Of a DNA stretch of 64,000 nucleotides, positions 24,448 through 57,100 are shown piece after piece. The stretch's first letter is position 1. Every line of letters begins with the position of its first letter. The notes under the pieces were generated by a model. It was given only the letters and a program-made list of their open reading frames with translations. It did not search any database and was not told the origin of the DNA. The position numbers were made by a program, and so were the translations under genes. This DNA is from Acanthamoeba castellanii str. Neff (lineage: Eukaryota > Discosea > Longamoebia > Acanthamoebidae), in assembly GCF_000313135.1 (NCBI RefSeq), contig NW_004457712.1, positions 752,790 through 816,789 on the forward strand. The letters run 5' to 3'.

Positions 24448-25248
24448 ATGCCCAGGAGGAAGAGGAAGGACCCCAACGCGCCCAAGCGCGCCATGACCGC
24501 CTACATGCTCTTCTCGCAGGAGAAACGAACGCAGATTAAGACCGACCATCCCACCGTCGGCTTCGGCCAAGTGGGCAAGCTGCTCGGAGAGGCCTGGGCG
24601 GCGCTGCCCGACGGAGATAAGAGGGTACGCTCAACTGGCATCTTCACAAGCCGTTGCTTCGCGTGCCAAATTTAGTCTATCCTTCGAATTTCAAATCGAA
24701 ATTGAATCGCTGACCTATACCCCTTGCGCTAGCGCAGAAGTACAACGAGCTTGCCGCCAAGGACAAGATCCGGTACCAGAAGGAGGCGGCTCAGTACAAG
24801 GAGGACCACCCCGAGAGCAGCGATGAGGAGGAGAGGCCGGCCAAGAAGAGGAAGAAGAAGGATCCCAATGCCCCCAAGAAGCCCTGCTCGGCCTTCTTCC
24901 ACTTCAGCAAGAAGATGAGGCCACGAATCAAGGACGAGAACCCAGACGCCTCCTTCGGCCAGCTCGGCAAGATCATTGGCGAACAGTGGTCGAAGCTCGG
25001 AGCCGATGAGCGAAAGGTAAACTCTACTCTCCCCATCAAATCCCTTGTCGCCCATTCCCAATCATTTATTTATTCATTCATTCCAGGAATTCGAGACCCT
25101 TGCCGCCGCAGACAAGGAGCGATACGCGAAGGAGATGAAGGACTATCAGGCCAAGAAGGACTCTAGCTCCGACTCTGATAGCTCTGACTCGTCCGACAGC
25201 GATTCCTCCTCTGGCTCGTCCGGCTCGTCTGATTCGGATTCTGACTAG
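24448..25248 (+). CDS. HMGB-type protein with two HMG boxes
   Basis: Three exons (24448-24624, 24738-25016, 25087-25248) encode 205 residues. Box 1 (DPNAPKRAMTAYMLFSQEKR, VGKLLGEAWAALPDGDKRKY) and box 2 (DPNAPKKPCSAFFHFSKKMR, LGKIIGEQWSKLGADERKEF) both have the Pro-Asn-Ala-Pro-Lys entry and the core Trp. A basic linker (ERPAKKRKKK) joins them. The tail is Ser/Asp-rich instead of the pure Asp/Glu tail of animal HMGB and may be a casein kinase 2 target. Such proteins bend DNA in chromatin without strong sequence preference. An AATAAA at 25454-25459 probably marks the transcript end, just before the next gene. Confidence 0.93.
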
Positions 25249-25575: not shown

Positions 25576-27240
25576 ATGGAGGCGGTCTACTTCTCCGACG
25601 ACGTCCTCTTGCACGTCTTCGAGTACTGCCCACCACCTCAACGAAACGTGTTGGTATGGGGCTAGCTAAGAACCTAGAGCAGGTTTGTGGGGTGGCGGGA
25701 CGTGGTGGTGAGGGCGAGCGCGGTCTGTCAGCGCTGGCGAGCCGCAAGCCTGGACAGCGCCCTCTGGAGCACCTTCTTCCGCTCTCGCTGGGGTGCCTCT
25801 CCTGCCCCCCCGCCAAAGAACGAAAACTGAAGAGAGAAATGCGACCGTCCACTGGTCAAGGAGCTGAGGCGGTGGCGGGCAACCGAGGCGACGCCCGAAG
25901 CTGGCTCGAGCTGTTTCGGGTCCGATACGCCCAAGAGGCGGTGGGGCTCGAGTGGTGGCGCGAGTATGGAAAGACGGAGTGGACTATTCAGCTCCCCATC
26001 GTCGATGTGGCCCAGCTGGGCGAGCTGGACCTCGCACTGATCGAGCAGGACGACTGCCCTACCGTTCGAGTGGTACATCCGTCCGTATGCGTGGTGTGCG
26101 GTGTTGTTTGAAGTCGTACGTAGTTGATGAGCCGACCTTTTTAGGGTCTGTTTGGGTTGTCGGGTGTGGGGAAAACAGCGCTCGCCACTCGCCTCGTCAA
26201 GGTGGCGTTCCAACCAATTCACACCACCACCTCGTCGTCGTCTTCTTACTTTCTCACGCCACTTCTCTCCACTCCAATTTGTCTCATCACAGAAACATTT
26301 CGTGGAGGAACACGACCCTGACGATGGTATGCAGGGTGGTGAATGCTAAAAATTGGGTTAACCCCGAAACTCACTCACACCAGAGGAGACCCACATTTAC
26401 AACTTGATGGTCGGGTTTCGCTCCGCTGCCTTGCATATCATGGCCCCCCCTGATCGGGTTGAATTCAAGGTACATACACTTCTCATCTTTCAACGACGTC
26501 GCATTTGCTTCTATTCCCCCAACGACTCCCTTTGGCCCTCCCTCGCAGGACATGCGGAACGGGTTCGTGAGGTCGATCCAGCTGCCGCTGGTGGTCTACT
26601 CGGCAACTTCGATCGAATCCTTCGCGGCCTGCGGCGACTACATTGACCAGGTGTGCACGCCACCTCAGACACACCTTTTCTTTTGGTTGTTATGAGGAAT
26701 GCACGCGCCCCTCATCATCTTCCCGTCACGCAACGTTGATGTGTGTGTGTGTGTGTGTGTGGGGGAGGGAGCAGGTCTGCCGGGTGATGGACTCCAGCTG
26801 GTGGCCGATCATCATGGTCGAGACCAAGGTCGACCTGGTCCATGAGCGGCGGGTGCCTACCGCGATGGGTCCCAAGGCTGCGCGATCCAGGGGCTGCCTT
26901 TTCATCAGGTTGGGACACATGACACACGACTCACGACTCACGACACACGACACACGACTCACGACACACGACACACGACACACGACACACGGCACGCACG
27001 CGACACGGCACACACACCACACACGGCACGCACACGGCTCTGGCACATGTCGACATGTCGGGCGAGCGCAGGACCAGCGCCAAGACGGGGGAGGGCGTCG
27101 AGGAGGCATTCTCGGGCTGCGCTCACCTGTTTAGCGCAGCCCGAACGGGTGCGCTCGGGCCGACGGTCGATTCCTGGGTCAACTCTTTTGTGCGCCTTGA
27201 CGTGCGGCGCAAGAAGAATGCCAACTGCCTTCTTGCATGA
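25576..27240 (+). CDS. F-box domain fused to a Ras-like GTPase with CAAX end
   Basis: Nine exons (25576-25622, 25683-25792, 25861-26072, 26145-26201, 26293-26326, 26384-26469, 26549-26650, 26775-26908, 27072-27240) give exactly 316 residues. The N-terminus is an F-box: FSDDVLLHVFEFVGWRDVVV, then RASAVCQRWRAASLDSALW, followed by the SWLELFRVRYA segment common after F-boxes. From about residue 124 there is a Ras-type domain: P-loop GLSGVGKTAL, KHFVEEHDPDD at switch I, LVVYSATSIESF, TKVD at G4, RTSAKTGEGVEEAF at G5. The protein ends RRKKNANCLLA, a polybasic stretch plus CAAX box. The switch I Thr is Asp and the DxxG of G3 is absent (APPDRV). F-boxes bind Skp1 in SCF ubiquitin ligases. A membrane-anchored ligase adaptor is an inference. 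No Met lies at the P-loop strand, which argues for one polypeptide. Confidence 0.78.
26739..26760. repeat. GT dinucleotide run in the F-box-Ras gene
   Basis: An uninterrupted TG/GT run within the intron before exon 8. Confidence 0.9.
26918..27040. repeat. ACACGAC/ACTCACG microsatellite in the F-box-Ras gene
   Basis: Tandem ACACGAC and ACTCACG units fill the last intron of the gene. Confidence 0.9.
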
Positions 27241-27348: not shown

Positions 27349-28344
27349 CTAGTAGTCCTTGTCGTCGTCGTAGTGGTCGTCGTCGTGCTTCTTGCCGCCG
27401 TCGCACTCGCGCTTGCACTGGCGGTGACGCGGGCACTTCTCGCCGTACTCGCGGTACTTGCCGTGCTCGTCGGGGTAACAGCCCTGGCCGTCGGCGTAGA
27501 ACACGCCGCAGTCGCGCTCGACGGGGTAGCAGCCGTGGGCATCGCGGTAGTACCACTGGTGGCCGATCTTGCGCGGGCAGCACCCGTCGTCGTCGCTCCA
27601 CTGGCCGCCGTGGCACTGCTTCTTCTTGTTGTCGTAGTCCTTGTCGTGGTCGTCATCGCAGGGCTTCTCGCTGGTGGTGCGGTGGTGCTTCTTGGTCGAG
27701 GTGGTCTCCTTGGGGCACTCCTCCGTGGTCGACGTGGTGCGGTGGTGCCTCCTGGTCGACGTGGTCTCCCTCCTCGTGGTGGTGGTCTCCTTGGGCGTGG
27801 TGGTGGTCTCCTTCTTTGTGGTGGTCTGCCTCCTGGTCGAGGTGGTCTCGCGGGGGCACTCCTCGGTGGTCGACGTGGTGCGGTGGTGCTTCCTGGTCGT
27901 CGTACTCTCGTGGCACTCGTCATCATCATCATAGTGGTCGTCGTGATCGGGACGAATGCAGTACTGGTGGCACTTGCGCTCATCGTCGCAGTGCTCGCCG
28001 TCCTTAGCGTAGTTACCCTTCTCGTCCGGGTAGTACCTGTCATGAGCGCAACCATCGAGTCAGCTCATGTGGATGCATGCATGTGCGCGCGTGTGCGCGT
28101 ACCCGTTGCCATCAGCGTAGAAGACGCCGCAGTCGAGGTCCTTGGGGTAGCACTTGTTGGCATCGCGGTAGTAGGCCTTGCCCTTGATGATCTTCGGGCA
28201 GCAGCCCTTGCCGTCGGGCCAGTAGCCGCCCTTGCACGGACCCTTGTTGTCGTGCTTGTCGTCATAGTCGCCATCGGCCAGGGCGGCGACGGCGAAGAGG
28301 GCGAGGCCGAGGGCCGCGATGAAGAGCAGCTTGGTGGATGTCAT
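27349..28344 (-). CDS. secreted Cys-rich protein, two modules around a Thr-rich stalk
   Basis: Two exons (28344-28103, 28036-27349) encode 309 residues. A signal peptide (LLFIAALGLALFAVAALADG) indicates secretion. Two similar Cys-rich modules follow the pattern C-x-GG-x-W-x-D-x3-GCCP, YYRDA-x2-CYP, DCGVFYADG-x-G, YPDE-x-G-x-Y, one at each end. Between them lies a stalk of repeated ETTST/HHRTTSTTEEC units rich in Thr, Lys and Arg, probably O-glycosylated. Asp/His-rich runs occur at the N-terminus, before the stalk and at the C-terminus (HDDDHYDDDKDY). I do not recognise the family. A wall, matrix or metal-binding role would be a guess. Its upstream region shares a promoter word with the Kazal genes next door. 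Confidence 0.8.
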
Positions 28345-28400
28345 CCCAAGGCTGGTTGTAGGCTGGTTGGTTGAGATGAGTGATTGTTTGGCCTGGTCGG

Positions 28401-28410
28401 GCGCCTTTTT
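28401..28410 (-). promoter_or_regulatory. AAAAAGGCGC word upstream of the Cys-rich gene
   Basis: Read on the minus strand this is AAAAAGGCGCC, about 60 bases before the start codon, with a CCAAT/ATTGG sequence about 20 bases further upstream. The same word lies upstream of both Kazal genes. Confidence 0.5.
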
Positions 28411-28866
28411 GTGGTGCTCGCCGGCCAATCAGACTGCGCGAGCTTGAGCACCTCCTCGGCGGGCCCATCAAGTCGCCCAATCCCACGCTCGAATAGGACT
28501 TAAAGCTTGAAACTAAAGTAATTGGTTCCATCTACAGCCTGTGCGTATGCTCTTAAGGCGAGTGGGTGTCGAGTCACCCTGAAGCTCATGTACAACTTTG
28601 AGGCCATTGTGGAGTTGGAGGAGATAAAGAACGAAAGCGGAAAAAGAGAGAAGAGCAGTTTAGTGTGCCATCATGTGGTGTCTGCGTCGCATGGGAGATC
28701 GAGAGGCCACCAGGTTTCGTTCCTCAAACCTCCTTGGGCCATGTTGGCAGAGCCGGGTGGTGTTTCGGAGTTTCAGGCGAGCCGGGCGGTTGGAGCAGCC
28801 GAGCTTGTGTTGCATCACCCTGCCAAAGGCATATAATGCAAAGAAACTCATGGATTCGCTCAAGCT

Positions 28867-51560: not shown

Positions 51561-53962
51561 ATGATGGAATCGGGAAGGAGCGCGGCAGGGACGCCTCTGC
51601 AGAGGGTGCGTCTCCAATTCCATACCCCGGACTTCGATCTGGGGCCGCTGCAGAGGACCTGGCTGTTGGTGCCGCCATCTGCCCGGGAGGTAAACGATCT
51701 CGCCTGGCTCATTTGCGATAAATTCAAACTCAAAAAGCAATGGCAAGAAGGTGCCGCCCCACTCTCCTATCTCTCCGTTTGCACAACCGCTATACTGACT
51801 GGTATTCAGGAATCCTGCTCGAGATGGAGAGATTTGCACTTCCGCTCACTGATCCAATCGAGATTTTGAGAGACAACGACACCATCACGTACATCTTTTT
51901 GCACAAGTGTTCCCTTCCCTAAAGCCTTCTGATCGCTGCTTGGTGTTTCTTATTCTTATCGCCGTAGGGTCCGTAAGAAGAAGGGAGCGACGCTCAAGCG
52001 TAGAAGGGACCACCAGCCCCTTCCCTTAGTACACGTACGTCGTTCAACGACATGTTCACAACCTTGCCAAGCTTTGTTGCACCGTTGCTTGCCTGATCTC
52101 ACACTCTGTCGCCGCACACGCACCACCGCACACGTTCGCACAGAACCTGGACGGTGAGGCGAATGGACACAGTAAGTCGCCGGAGAAGACGAAGCGGAGG
52201 AAGGACGGCACGGAGGTCGACGGAGCACAGCCGCCACGCAAGCATAAGACGGCCGAGAATAAGGAGAACGAGAGGGACCAAAAGGCGAAGGCGAAGGCGA
52301 AGGAGAACGAAACAGAGAAGAAAAAGAACAAAGAGAAGGAGAACGAAAAGAAAGCGGAGAAGGAGAAGGAGAAGGAGGAAGAGATAAAGAAAAAGACGGA
52401 AGAAAGAAAGAGGAGGAGGAGGAAGAAGAAAGCTCAAGCTCGGAGGACGAGAGCTCCAGTTCGGAGGACGAGTCGTCGTCATCCTCGTCGTCCAGCTCCT
52501 CCGACGAAGACTCGAGCTCCGACGAAGACCAGGCAAAGGCCAAGGAGCCCGAACAGCCGGCCAAGCCCCAGCAGCAGCAGCAGAATGCCGGCAGGCCGCA
52601 AGCGCAGCCGGGCACACCGGCGAAGGGCCACGTGCGCTTCGGCCCAGATGGTGGCGCCCAGCACGCAACCCCGCCACCGCCGGCACCGCACCAGCCACCA
52701 CACCAACCCTCGCCAGACCAGTTTCGATGGGTACGCACTCACGCTCGCCGCCGCACGCACCACCGCACACGCTCACGCTCCGCAAACAGAACCAGGGGCG
52801 CGGCCGAGGGAGAGGCGTACCATCACCAAGCGGTGGTCCGTTTCCACCTCCGTCGCATATGATGGGTCGCGGACGGGGCCGCGGCTTTGGCGGGTTCGAC
52901 CCGGCGGCCGGGCGAGGAGGCAGCGGGCGCGGGGCCTGGGGGCCGCCCAACAACGGCGGATACCTACCCCAGCCCCCGTACCCAACTCCGCCCTATGGTG
53001 CGCCGTACGACGCTCACCAAGCACCAGGTGCGTTTCTTGTGGGTCGTGCCATCGTGTTGTGTCGTTGGTCGTGCCGTGCGTGTCCTGCGGTTTGAGTCTG
53101 ACGCATACACACTGCGTAGGGCTGCTTCCATCTCCGGATCGGCCAGCTCCGCAGGCGTGGGGCAGCGACATTGCCTACGCCGCGGGCTTTGCGTCGCAGC
53201 CGTCCGGGGTCCAGTCACCCTTCACTCCAGCCACCGGCCACCAGCCCCAGCAGCACGGTGGTGGTCACAACGGAGACCTACGCTACGGCCAGCAGCAGCA
53301 GCAGCAGCAGCACGAGGCCACGCCGCCGCCGATCGTCACGTATTCGTCTTCGCTTGATTGGAAGAAGAACACCCACCCGTCGTACGCGCCACCGCCGCCG
53401 CTCGAGCCGCCCAAGGACTACTCCCGCTGCCCGCCCTTCCCAGCCTCCGACCGTAAGCCGCGAGTGCGTACCCCCGGCCTCTCTCTGTGCGCGTGTGGCG
53501 TGTGGCGTGTGCGGTCGTGCGTGTGTCGTATGCCGTGTCACTCCCCTCAGCTCTCCTTAGTTGGTCACCAAAGCTGATGTCTTGGGTGATGTCACCATTG
53601 TCGCAGCGCGGGGACGTTATCGCGTACCAGATATTGGAGATGAAGGACGGCGGGCCGTCCTACTCGGCACACAAGGTTCGTACACGTGTGGTGTCGTGTT
53701 GTGCTTTGTTTTATTGCCATCGGTGCGATTGGTTGGTTGCAATAGAGCTCATCAGCTGGTAAATATGGTGGTGTAGGAAGCGACGGTAGAGTTGTACGAC
53801 GCGGGGACGTCGATGGTGTGTGTGCGCGCCAAGAACCTCTCGTCGGTGCCGCTCGACGGATCCTACGTGGCTTCGGAGGAGGACCGTGCGGCCCTCTTCG
53901 AGAGCTCCGTCAACCTGGCCTGGGACCAGCTGGCCGACGTAAGGCTGTTGTCCTCTTCATGA
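51561..53962 (+). CDS. COIL: coilin, Cajal body scaffold protein
   Basis: A multi-exon gene with the coilin plan. The N-terminal ubiquitin-like self-association domain has RVRLQFHTPDFDLGPLQRTW, LLVPPSAREVNDLAWLI and LTDPIEILRDNDTITV, matching the coilin RLVRDND block. Basic and acidic-Ser tracts follow, then an RGG-type box (GRGRGRGFGGFDPAAGRGGS) and the C-terminal Tudor-like domain introduced by EPPKDYSRCPPF, with RGDVIAYQILEMKDG and ATVELYDAGTSM. Coilin organises Cajal bodies, where spliceosomal and nucleolar RNPs mature. The reading frame changes within the purine-rich stretch around 52170-52420, so splicing or an indel there is uncertain. Either Met of the tandem pair at 51561 could start. 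Confidence 0.8.
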
Positions 53963-54173: not shown

Positions 54174-57100
54174 ATGGGAAAAGCAAAGGGAGGAAAGAAG
54201 CGCCCTCTGTCGAGCGCGCCCAAGAAGGCCGAGCCGAAGATCAATCCCTTCGAGCGGAAGATTGTGAGACCGAAATTCTCGGTGCTGGGCCGCAATCTCA
54301 AGGAGACCGAGAAGACGGCAGGCCAATCGCGTCAGGTGGCAACCGAATCGGTACGGTTGCGCCTCAAATCTCCTCAAATCGTCCAGACATCTCCATTCAA
54401 TTTCATCCGCAATTTTCTTCCATCTGCGATTAATGCTGTTTTTTTGTTCAATCATGTGCAGCGTAAGTCGACCCTGCTGAAGGAGTACGAGCAGCTGGGC
54501 AAGGCCAACAAGTTCGTGGATCAGCGTATCGGTGAGAAGGACAAGTCGCTCTCGCGCGAGGACAAGGCTCTCCAGCGTTTCCAGAAGGAGCGACAGGTGC
54601 GGCACTCCTCACCGCTACTCGCGTCATCTTCTTCTCCTTCGTTTCCTTTGTAGAGCCTCGTTTCCATTCCATGTGGCAGCTTCACCCACCTTCTTCTTCT
54701 TTTCTTCCTCTACTTGCTTCTTGCCTGCAGGCCCGCTTCAAGAAGAGCGATGTGTTCAACCTCGAGGAAGAGGAGCTTACGCACATGGGCACCTCGCTCT
54801 CCAAGATGGACGACTTTGGCGAAGACTTCAAGGACTCCTCCGACGACGAGGAGGGCGGTAACCACTTCTTCTTTCTTCTTCGTTCTTCATCTCTTCTACA
54901 CCACGTTCTTCTTCTTCTTCTTCATGTTCGTCTTCTACATCGACTCACCGAGTGGTGTGGTTGTGGTGACCTGGCAGGCCACCTGGACGCCGACACGGTC
55001 AACTCGCTGCACTTTGGCGGCTTCGAGTCGGACAAGCAGGACGAGGCCGACGGCAAGCGGAAGAGCAAGCGCGAGGTCATGTCGGAGCTGATCGCCAAGA
55101 GCAAGTTCTACAAGGCCGAGCGACAAAAGGAGAAGCTCGAGGTCGAGGAGCTCACGGACAAGCTCGACGACGCGTGGCGCGGGCTGCTCAAGCAGGGCGC
55201 CTTCGCGGGCATGGTGCGGAACAACCGGCGGGAGGACCCCGTCGACCTCCTCATGAAGAGCCTCGAGCGGGCCAAGAAGGGCGACAAGGGCCTCCAGGTC
55301 GCCACATCTGCCGCCGAAGCCTTCGACAGCATGCAGGACGATAACGAAAACAAGGTACCACTCACGACACGACACGACACGCGCCATCGCACACTCTGGC
55401 TTGAAGAAAAATGCTAACGTCGCGTTGTGGCACGCACAGGACGACTTCAACATGCTCTTCCGTGAGCTGGCGTTCGAGATGAAGGGCAAGGCCACGGACC
55501 GACTCAAGACGCCCGAGGAGATCGCCAAGGAGGAGAAGGAGCGGCTGGAGCAGCTCGAGGTACCTCTCGTCACCACCACCACCACCACCATCATCAGCCC
55601 CACCAGCATTACCATTTCCACCACGCGCGTCTTGTCGTGTCTTGGCCGTCAAGACGTGGTCGATGCCAGGCTCATCACTCACCTTTTACCGTTCTCGTGT
55701 GTAGCGTGAGCGACTGCGCCGCATGCAGGGCGACGTGAGCGAAGACGAGAGCGAGGATCAGGAGGAGGAAGGAGAAGAGGAGGACGAAGAGGGCGAAGAG
55801 GGAGAAGAGGGAGAGGAGGAGGTGGACGGCGAGGAGGAGGATGAAGATGACGATGAAGAAGACGAGGAGGCAGAGAACGCCAAGGAAGCGGAAGCTGAAG
55901 ACGACGATGAGGACGAGGACGGCGAAGCGGAGGAAGACGCGGCGAGCACGGGCAAGAAGCGCAAGCACGCGATCGATGACGAGGAGGACTACTTCCTCGA
56001 GCCCCAGCTAGACGACGACCTCGGCGGCGGCGGCAGCGACGACGAGGACGACGATGAAGATGACGGCGAGGGCGATGACGGCAAGAGGAAAAAGAAGAGC
56101 AAGAAGGCGGCCCTGCCCGTGTTCGGGCAGAACATCGAGGATCTGCCCTTCACCTTCGAAATGCCCGAGAACCACAAGGTACCCATTCCCCTCTTTTTCC
56201 CTATCCGTGTCGTGTGCGTGTCGTGCGTGTCGTGTCGTGTCGTGTCTGGGCGCGTGCTTATGGACGGCGATTGCGTGCGTTGCAGGCGTTTTTGCACATC
56301 GTCAAAGACAGGGACAGCACCCAGCTCGACGTGGTGGTGCACCGTATGCGCGTGTGCCACGACCTCGCCCTCTCGGCCGACAACAGGGCCAAGATCGAGG
56401 TACTTTATTACGTTATTTGAAACGCACACGCGTGATCACAGCTGCGCATAGCTTACATTCCATTGGTTGCCACCGACCGCAGCGTCTCGTGGGGATTCTC
56501 TACGATCACTTTGCGCACGTGGGCAAGGCCGACAAGGTCGACATGCCGGCGCTGGACGTGCTCACCAAGCACCTGTTCCAGCTCGCGCAGACCATGCCCG
56601 ACCCCTCGGCCCGCGCCGCCCGTGAGCGTCTCACCGCCATGCAGCAGGCCCTCTACACGCGCCTCACCACCGTTCAGCGTACGCTCCCATCTCCCTGTGT
56701 GCGTGTGCGGTGGCGTGTGCGGTACGTGCTGATGAGGTGTTGGTTCGTCATGACGGCAGTGAGTGGTCGCAAGGGAACGTGGCCGTGGCCCGGCGTGGAG
56801 GAGCTGCTCTTCCTCAAGCTGGTCTCCGTCATCTTCCCCACCACCGGTGCGTCTCTTCAAATGCAAATAATAAAAATAATAATAATAATAACTGTTGGCT
56901 CACGATCCGGCTTTGCCCTCCGACGACAGATTTCCAGCACACGGTGACGACGCCCGCGGTCCTGTTCATCGGCCAGGTGCTGTCCCAGTGCCCGCTGACC
57001 AACCCGCTCCACGCCGTGGTCGGCCTGTTCCTGGCCAACCTCGCCTTCCACGTACCACTACCACTCTTCTCACCCATCGCGCGCAGAGCCCGACTAATAT

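What the first reader, a model, noticed from the sequence alone, without database searches (positions are those of the whole stretch)
25576..27240. F-box domain fused to a Ras-like GTPase with a CAAX tail
Nine exons with matching phases join an F-box plus its usual trailing SWLELFRVRYA segment to a Ras-fold domain and a C-terminal CLLA box preceded by RRKK. No Met precedes the P-loop strand, and the total is exactly 317 codons. I know of no described family with this order. It would make a prenylated, membrane-anchored SCF adaptor with a nucleotide-binding domain, possibly recruiting substrates at membranes.
Basis: partly seen in the sequence, partly recalled or inferred. Interest (0 to 1): 0.87.

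Follow-up and report, generated by a model that had tools for sequence, protein, structure and literature searches.

The report
Amoeba F-box–Ras fusion gene family
An Acanthamoeba gene joins an F-box (the part that plugs into a protein-destroying complex) to a worn Ras-type switch with a membrane-anchor tail, and it is one of at least a dozen such genes in the same genome, which suggests that the amoeba repeatedly built membrane-bound ubiquitin-ligase receptors out of small GTPases.

Summary
A paralog (L015, 114/298 identical) has the same architecture, the same CLLA end and its 7 introns at matching columns and phases. Transcript-like database proteins show exons 3–6 and 7–9 spliced, but do not cover exons 1–2. 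Two splice choices change: intron 1 is better as 25623–25682, and intron 2 should end by 25872. The genome, close to Acanthamoeba castellanii Neff, holds at least 12 F-box–GTPase fusions, 11 of 12 ending in a CAAX box. Their G domains are Ras-, Rho- and Rab-type, and one clade is rejected. The window's own G domain lost DTAGQ and Thr35 but keeps P-loop, TKVD and SAK: a likely pseudo-GTPase. Against it: the transcript-like ORF ends exactly at a C7 run (26444–26450) where one more C would truncate the protein. The F-box–GTPase order is already described (TbFRP), and one sibling is deposited as "Ras subfamily protein". Verdict: real; new variant of a known kind (an SCF counterpart of RhoBTB); mechanism inferred.

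The parts
25576..27240 (+). whole gene, ATG to stop, nine exons
25683..25792 (+). exon 2 (rest of the F-box); not covered by a transcript-like protein
25861..26072 (+). exon 3: SWLELFRVRYA segment and linker to the first G-domain strand; start uncertain (25819, 25837, 25861 or 25864), not 25888 if P0041 is spliced there
26145..26201 (+). exon 4: P-loop GLSGVGKT (26154-26177)
26293..26326 (+). exon 5: KHFVEEHDPDD, switch I with Asp at the Thr35 position
26384..26469 (+). exon 6: switch II region; APPDR (26443-26457) in place of DTAGQ
26444..26450 (+). C7 run; with eight C the frame would stop after MAPP (176 aa), where P0041 ends
26549..26650 (+). exon 7
26775..26908 (+). exon 8: G4 motif TKVD
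27072..27240 (+). exon 9: G5 motif SAK, RRKK (27205-27216), CLLA (27226-27237), TGA

Best explanation
The locus is one nine-exon gene for a 316-residue protein: F-box, a connector with conserved aromatic residues, a divergent Ras-type G domain, and a basic CAAX tail. Most likely it is a membrane-anchored SCF substrate receptor: the F-box binds Skp1-Cul1, the prenylated tail holds the ligase on a membrane, and the G domain is the recognition module, binding regulators or effectors of Ras-like proteins so that these are ubiquitinated there. In this member the G domain has lost the switch chemistry and probably works as a fixed binding surface; siblings with intact G boxes could be switched by GTP. 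Shown: gene structure (exons 1-2 by homology only), domain identity, CAAX ending, family membership, mixed G-domain types. Inferred: Skp1 binding, prenylation, substrate recognition, membrane site.
For: Pfam Ras 92.3 bits and F-box-like 30.6 to 36.0 bits depending on intron 1. Paralog L015: 114/298 identical, its 7 introns all at the same alignment column and phase, same CLLA end (introns 1 and 2 of both models were chosen by hand with each other in view). Exons 3-6 and 7-9 joined in P0041 and P0040, 119 of 120 and 133 of 133 residues exact. At least 12 fusion loci; 11 of 12 end in C-x-x-Q or C-x-x-A plus stop, none found for L011 (models). Sibling P0017 is contiguous ANK-F-box-G domain-CVLQ. 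The G domain is closest to NRas/KRas/HRas among solved structures (1e-24). Working analogue: RhoBTB, a GTPase fused to a cullin-3 adaptor, RhoBTB3 with CAAX (PMC4931677, passages).
Against: No database protein returned covers exons 1-2 of this gene. P0041 ends exactly at MAPP, as a C8 run would make it, and P0040 starts at the next Met, so in the sequenced RNA the frame may be broken in the middle of the G domain. Intron 1 is unsettled and the F-box score depends on it. The structure job on the sibling gave mean pLDDT 37.4 and says nothing. No direct evidence for Skp1 binding or prenylation.
Confidence: 0.58

Rival explanations
1. The gene is a decaying or truncated member: the real run is C8, translation stops at MAPP, and the product is an F-box plus half a G domain; the downstream exons are relics.
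For: P0041 (source tag lgn, 3 members, 7 contigs) ends at MAPP exactly as C8 predicts, and P0040 starts at the next Met. Switch II is already lost. No protein with both halves was returned by searches that admitted about 193-612 aa and 109-348 aa.
Against: P0042, which looks like unspliced DNA of another strain, reads MAPPDRIEFK in frame, and its exon 7 residues equal the window's. L015 keeps the whole G domain and the same CLLA tail. The window and fetched loci hold 63 C/G runs of 8 to 12, so the assembly does not trim such runs in general. A contig break at the run would also explain P0041.
Confidence: 0.22
2. The F-box mainly destroys its own G domain: a short-lived GTPase, as suggested for TbFRP, and not a receptor for other proteins.
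For: The TbFRP authors proposed that the F-box may be coupled to the protein's rapid proteolysis (PMC3593210, passages).
Against: Several siblings have damaged G boxes (L012, L017, L018), odd cargo for regulated self-destruction. Untested.
Confidence: 0.2
3. Two neighbouring genes, an F-box protein and a Ras protein, joined only in the model.
For: Exons 1 and 2 rest on homology; introns 1 and 2 are ambiguous.
Against: Conserved order, introns and tail in L015; orientation bias, 8 upstream against 0 downstream on the same strand; contiguous sibling proteins P0017 and P0018; no Met between residue 1 and the P-loop in the spliced model.
Confidence: 0.05

Closest known systems
TbFRP (FYVE-F-box-Ras-like GTPase, Euglenozoa; PMC3593210, passages seen)
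   Same: F-box placed before a Ras-superfamily GTPase in one protein; link of ubiquitin machinery, membrane and small GTPase proposed.
   Different: Has an N-terminal FYVE domain, ends VLLD without CAAX, G domain thought by its authors to derive from Rab18/Ypt6. Here: CAAX, no FYVE, Ras, Rho and Rab types, at least 12 genes.
RhoBTB1-3 (PMC4931677, passages seen)
   Same: Atypical small GTPase fused to a cullin adaptor; RhoBTB3 has a CAAX motif; receptor for a ubiquitin ligase.
   Different: BTB domains and cullin 3, GTPase before the adaptor; here an F-box (cullin 1 expected) before the GTPase.
A. castellanii Neff 'Ras subfamily protein' (P0018, gene L012) and P0017 (gene L017)
   Same: Sibling genes: F-box, G domain, C-x-x-X end.
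   Different: Ankyrin repeats and Rab-type G domain; Pfam lists no ankyrin repeat in the window protein.
ARF-family proteins with an F-box or BTB domain (PMC8358228, one passage seen)
   Same: Small GTPase and ubiquitin-adaptor domain in one protein.
   Different: ARF family; no details of order or taxon seen.
Legionella AnkB (named from passages of PMC7830128; no sequence fetched)
   Same: F-box, ankyrin repeats and a farnesylated CaaX tail, binding host Skp1.
   Different: Bacterial effector; no G domain named in the passages; resemblance of parts to P0017/P0018 only, homology not tested.

Membership tests
Ras family GTPases | Pfam Ras domain over cut-off | tested here: met
   92.3 bits, cut-off 21.6; best solved relatives NRas/KRas/HRas
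Ras family GTPases | G1, G4 and G5 nucleotide-binding motifs | tested here: met
   GLSGVGKT, TKVD (Rho-like form of NKxD) and SAK in the alignment; motif roles recalled
Ras family GTPases | G2 Thr35 and G3 DxxGQ (switches) | tested here: not met
   Asp at 35, APPDR for DTAGQ; at most a pseudo-GTPase
F-box proteins | F-box domain over Pfam cut-off | tested here: met
   F-box-like 30.6, 33.4 or 36.0 bits by intron-1 choice, cut-off 24.3; PF00646 over its cut-off of 20.5 for two of the three choices
F-box proteins | binds Skp1 in an SCF complex | not testable with these tools
   needs a pull-down
Prenylated CAAX proteins | C-a-a-X at the very end of the frame | tested here: met
   CLLA then TGA; prenylation itself not testable
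TbFRP | N-terminal FYVE domain | tested here: not met
   Pfam lists no FYVE in the 316-aa model at E <= 0.001
RhoBTB | BTB domains after the GTPase | tested here: not met
   Pfam lists no BTB at E <= 0.001
Acanthamoeba F-box-GTPase-CAAX family (this report) | F-box, G domain and CAAX in one gene, introns shared with a sibling | tested here: met
   L015, 7 of its 7 introns shared

The most novel reading that the evidence does not exclude
Acanthamoeba has repeatedly turned small GTPases (Ras, Rho and Rab types) into prenylated SCF receptors, a cullin-1 counterpart of RhoBTB in which the G domain chooses the target and the lipid chooses the membrane; the window gene is a switch-less member. The ankyrin-bearing members carry the same three parts (ankyrin, F-box, CAAX) as the bacterial effector AnkB and may be the kind of host protein that it imitates.
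Probability: 0.3. Interest if true: 0.85.

Novelty: new variant of a known kind. Interest (0 to 1): 0.62.

Why it matters
If true, a free-living amoeba has a multi-gene class of membrane-bound ubiquitin-ligase receptors whose recognition part is a small GTPase, built more than once. That gives a natural test of how a G domain becomes a degradation receptor. It also puts ankyrin, F-box and CAAX together in proteins of an amoeba that hosts intracellular bacteria, a combination described for a bacterial effector.

Tried and rejected
A codon-usage gene finder written here gave wrong models and was dropped. C172 (F-box at 56325, GTPase at 53345) was rejected as a fusion: two genes about 2.5 kb apart. 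The second GTPase gene in L018 ends RRCCT and has only a chance-level F-box match. Trimming of C/G runs as a general fault of the assembly was tested and not seen. Ten literature searches listed no paper on this fusion in Acanthamoeba; the library is open-access only, and I opened passages of seven papers, none as a whole: PMC8296547, PMC3593210, PMC8358228, PMC10913462, PMC4053784, PMC4931677, PMC7830128. The Acanthamoeba genome paper PMC4053784 has no 'F-box' in its held text, and the Acanthamoeba Rab paper PMC10913462 has no 'ankyrin' or 'CAAX'. The Naegleria fowleri paper PMC8296547 cites F-box and BTB reviews within its small-GTPase references, but its supplement was not readable here, so a Naegleria precedent is possible.

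Full report
What is there. The window is part of a 38.4 Mb, 250-contig genome. It is Acanthamoeba castellanii Neff or close to it: residues 53-434 of a protein deposited for A. castellanii str. Neff (P0018) match locus L012 exactly; residues 1-52 were not matched in the fetched stretch. Pfam finds a Ras domain (92.3 bits) and an F-box (F-box-like 33.4 bits) in that model, both above curated cut-offs.

Gene structure, corrected. The best check is a paralog, L015 (contig C15, 1087000-1089600), found by searching the genome with the window protein. Its spliced protein is 114/298 identical, starts MEA, has the F-box, the connector, the Ras domain and ends CLLA. All 7 of its introns sit at the same alignment column and phase as introns 1-7 of the window gene; the window's intron 8 has no counterpart. 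Introns 1 and 2 of both genes were chosen by hand with the comparison in view, so the independent support is for introns 3-7. All pass the F-box-like cut-off of 24.3.

Transcript-like evidence. The third protein search gave two proteins of source tag lgn that are contiguous across introns of the window: P0041 (exons 3-6; 119 of 120 residues exact) and P0040 (exons 7-9; 133 of 133 exact). Only spliced RNA, or a spliced copy, gives this; a short pattern of exon 6 occurs once in the genome. That lgn means assembled sequencing runs with transcripts is my inference. Neither protein covers exons 1-2.

The frame question. P0041 ends ...HIMAPP. In the window the run there is seven C and the frame goes on; with eight C the frame stops after exactly that residue, at 176 aa. 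P0040 begins at the next Met. So the sequenced RNA may carry one more C, which would truncate the protein. P0042, which looks like unspliced DNA of another strain, reads on in frame, MAPPDRIEFK. The window and loci hold 63 C/G runs of 8-12 in 342,579 bases, so such runs are not trimmed in general. This is unresolved and is the strongest point against a full-length product.

The G domain. It aligns without gaps through the switch regions to NRas. P-loop GLSGVGKT, TKVD and SAK are kept; Thr35 is Asp, and DTAGQ is APPDR. L015 keeps DTAG, followed by Asn. The window member is therefore a derived, probably switch-less relative; the roles of the motifs are general knowledge.

A family. Intersecting hits and scanning fetched loci with profiles built here gives 12 fusion loci including the window: L009, L010, L011, L012, L013, L015, L016, L017, L018, L031, L069. 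Among 44 regions not chosen for an F-box (L001-L008, L019-L034, L065-L084), 2 had one upstream of the GTPase above chance level (L031, L069). Sixty further regions could not be fetched. Eleven of 12 end in C-x-x-Q or C-x-x-A at the stop codon (last exons picked by hand); for L011 I found none. L009 has the G boxes of a Rho protein and a lysine-rich CSMQ tail. P0017, which equals L017, is one 464-aa protein with ankyrin repeats, F-box, G domain and CVLQ. F-boxes lie upstream on the same strand of GTPase loci 8 times within 1.5 kb against 0 downstream, 0.46 expected.

In the databases. Of 23 proteins returned for the family alignment, 2 (P0017, P0018) carry both F-box and Ras by the precomputed domains, 2 (P0028, P0037) an F-box without Ras, and 19 a GTPase domain only; just the 7995 candidates sharing most words were scored. 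The two searches with the window protein returned no other fusion (16 proteins, 13). So a spread beyond Acanthamoeba is neither shown nor excluded.

More than one join. A quick tree of 12 fused and 31 other G domains of the genome puts the window, L015 and L011 with Ras proteins, L009 and L010 with Rho, and seven with Rab-like proteins (SH-aLRT 97, 99 and 91, no bootstrap). Holding all 12 together is rejected (p-AU 5.4e-51); holding the three Ras-type ones together is not (0.544). The F-box label needs 7 changes on the tree, at least 3 forced by supported branches. I read this as separate joins or swaps of the G domain, since an F-box on the ancestor of Ras, Rho and Rab, lost everywhere else, is implausible. 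Damaged domains make long branches, so finer placement is weak.

How it would work. The simplest reading is a membrane-anchored SCF receptor in which the G domain recognises partners. The precedent in kind is RhoBTB, a GTPase fused to a cullin-3 adaptor, RhoBTB3 even with CAAX. The precedent in order is TbFRP, FYVE-F-box-GTPase, without CAAX and with a suggested role of the F-box in turnover. ARF-family proteins with F-box or BTB domains are mentioned in a survey. None of these steps is shown here for the Acanthamoeba proteins.

Parallel. A review describes the Legionella effector AnkB as F-box, ankyrin repeats and a farnesylated CaaX tail that binds host Skp1, and notes ankyrin repeats in Acanthamoeba F-box proteins (passages). 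Two Acanthamoeba proteins here (P0017, P0018) carry ankyrin, F-box and a CAAX ending. Whether this is imitation or coincidence was not tested.

Verdict. Real gene and real family; new variant of a known kind; the window member itself may be a degenerate or, in some material, truncated copy.

Noticed in passing
window 24714-25248: End of the upstream + strand gene: HMG-box-like segment followed by a Ser/Asp-rich tail, resembling SSRP1/FACT (by eye, name recalled, not searched).
   Followed up: no
window 27349-28428 (- strand): Downstream gene on the other strand: Cys-rich protein with a signal-like start and Thr/His/Asp-rich repeats (TTSTRRHHRTTSTTEEC), by eye.
   Followed up: no
L009 (C124:1645700-1647600): F-box fused to a Rho-type GTPase with intact G boxes and a lysine-rich CSMQ tail: the best family member for biochemistry.
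   Followed up: partly
L012, L013, L016, L017, L018, L069: Subfamily with an intron after the F-box AQxC segment and a W-x-x-x-Y-x-x-W connector; Rab-type domains that end in CAAX instead of the usual Rab CC end. Ankyrin repeats shown by Pfam for two (P0018 = L012, P0017 = L017), by eye in others.
   Followed up: partly
L081 (C79:100200-103900): Ras-like domain without an F-box whose P-loop and DTAG are damaged: another possible pseudo-Ras in this genome.
   Followed up: no
C93:584815- and C93:585341+, 586242+: F-box hit on the opposite strand next to two Rho-type loci; not a fusion in the scan.
   Followed up: no
window 26909-27071: Intron 8 is filled with ACACGACTC-like repeats (by eye).
   Followed up: no
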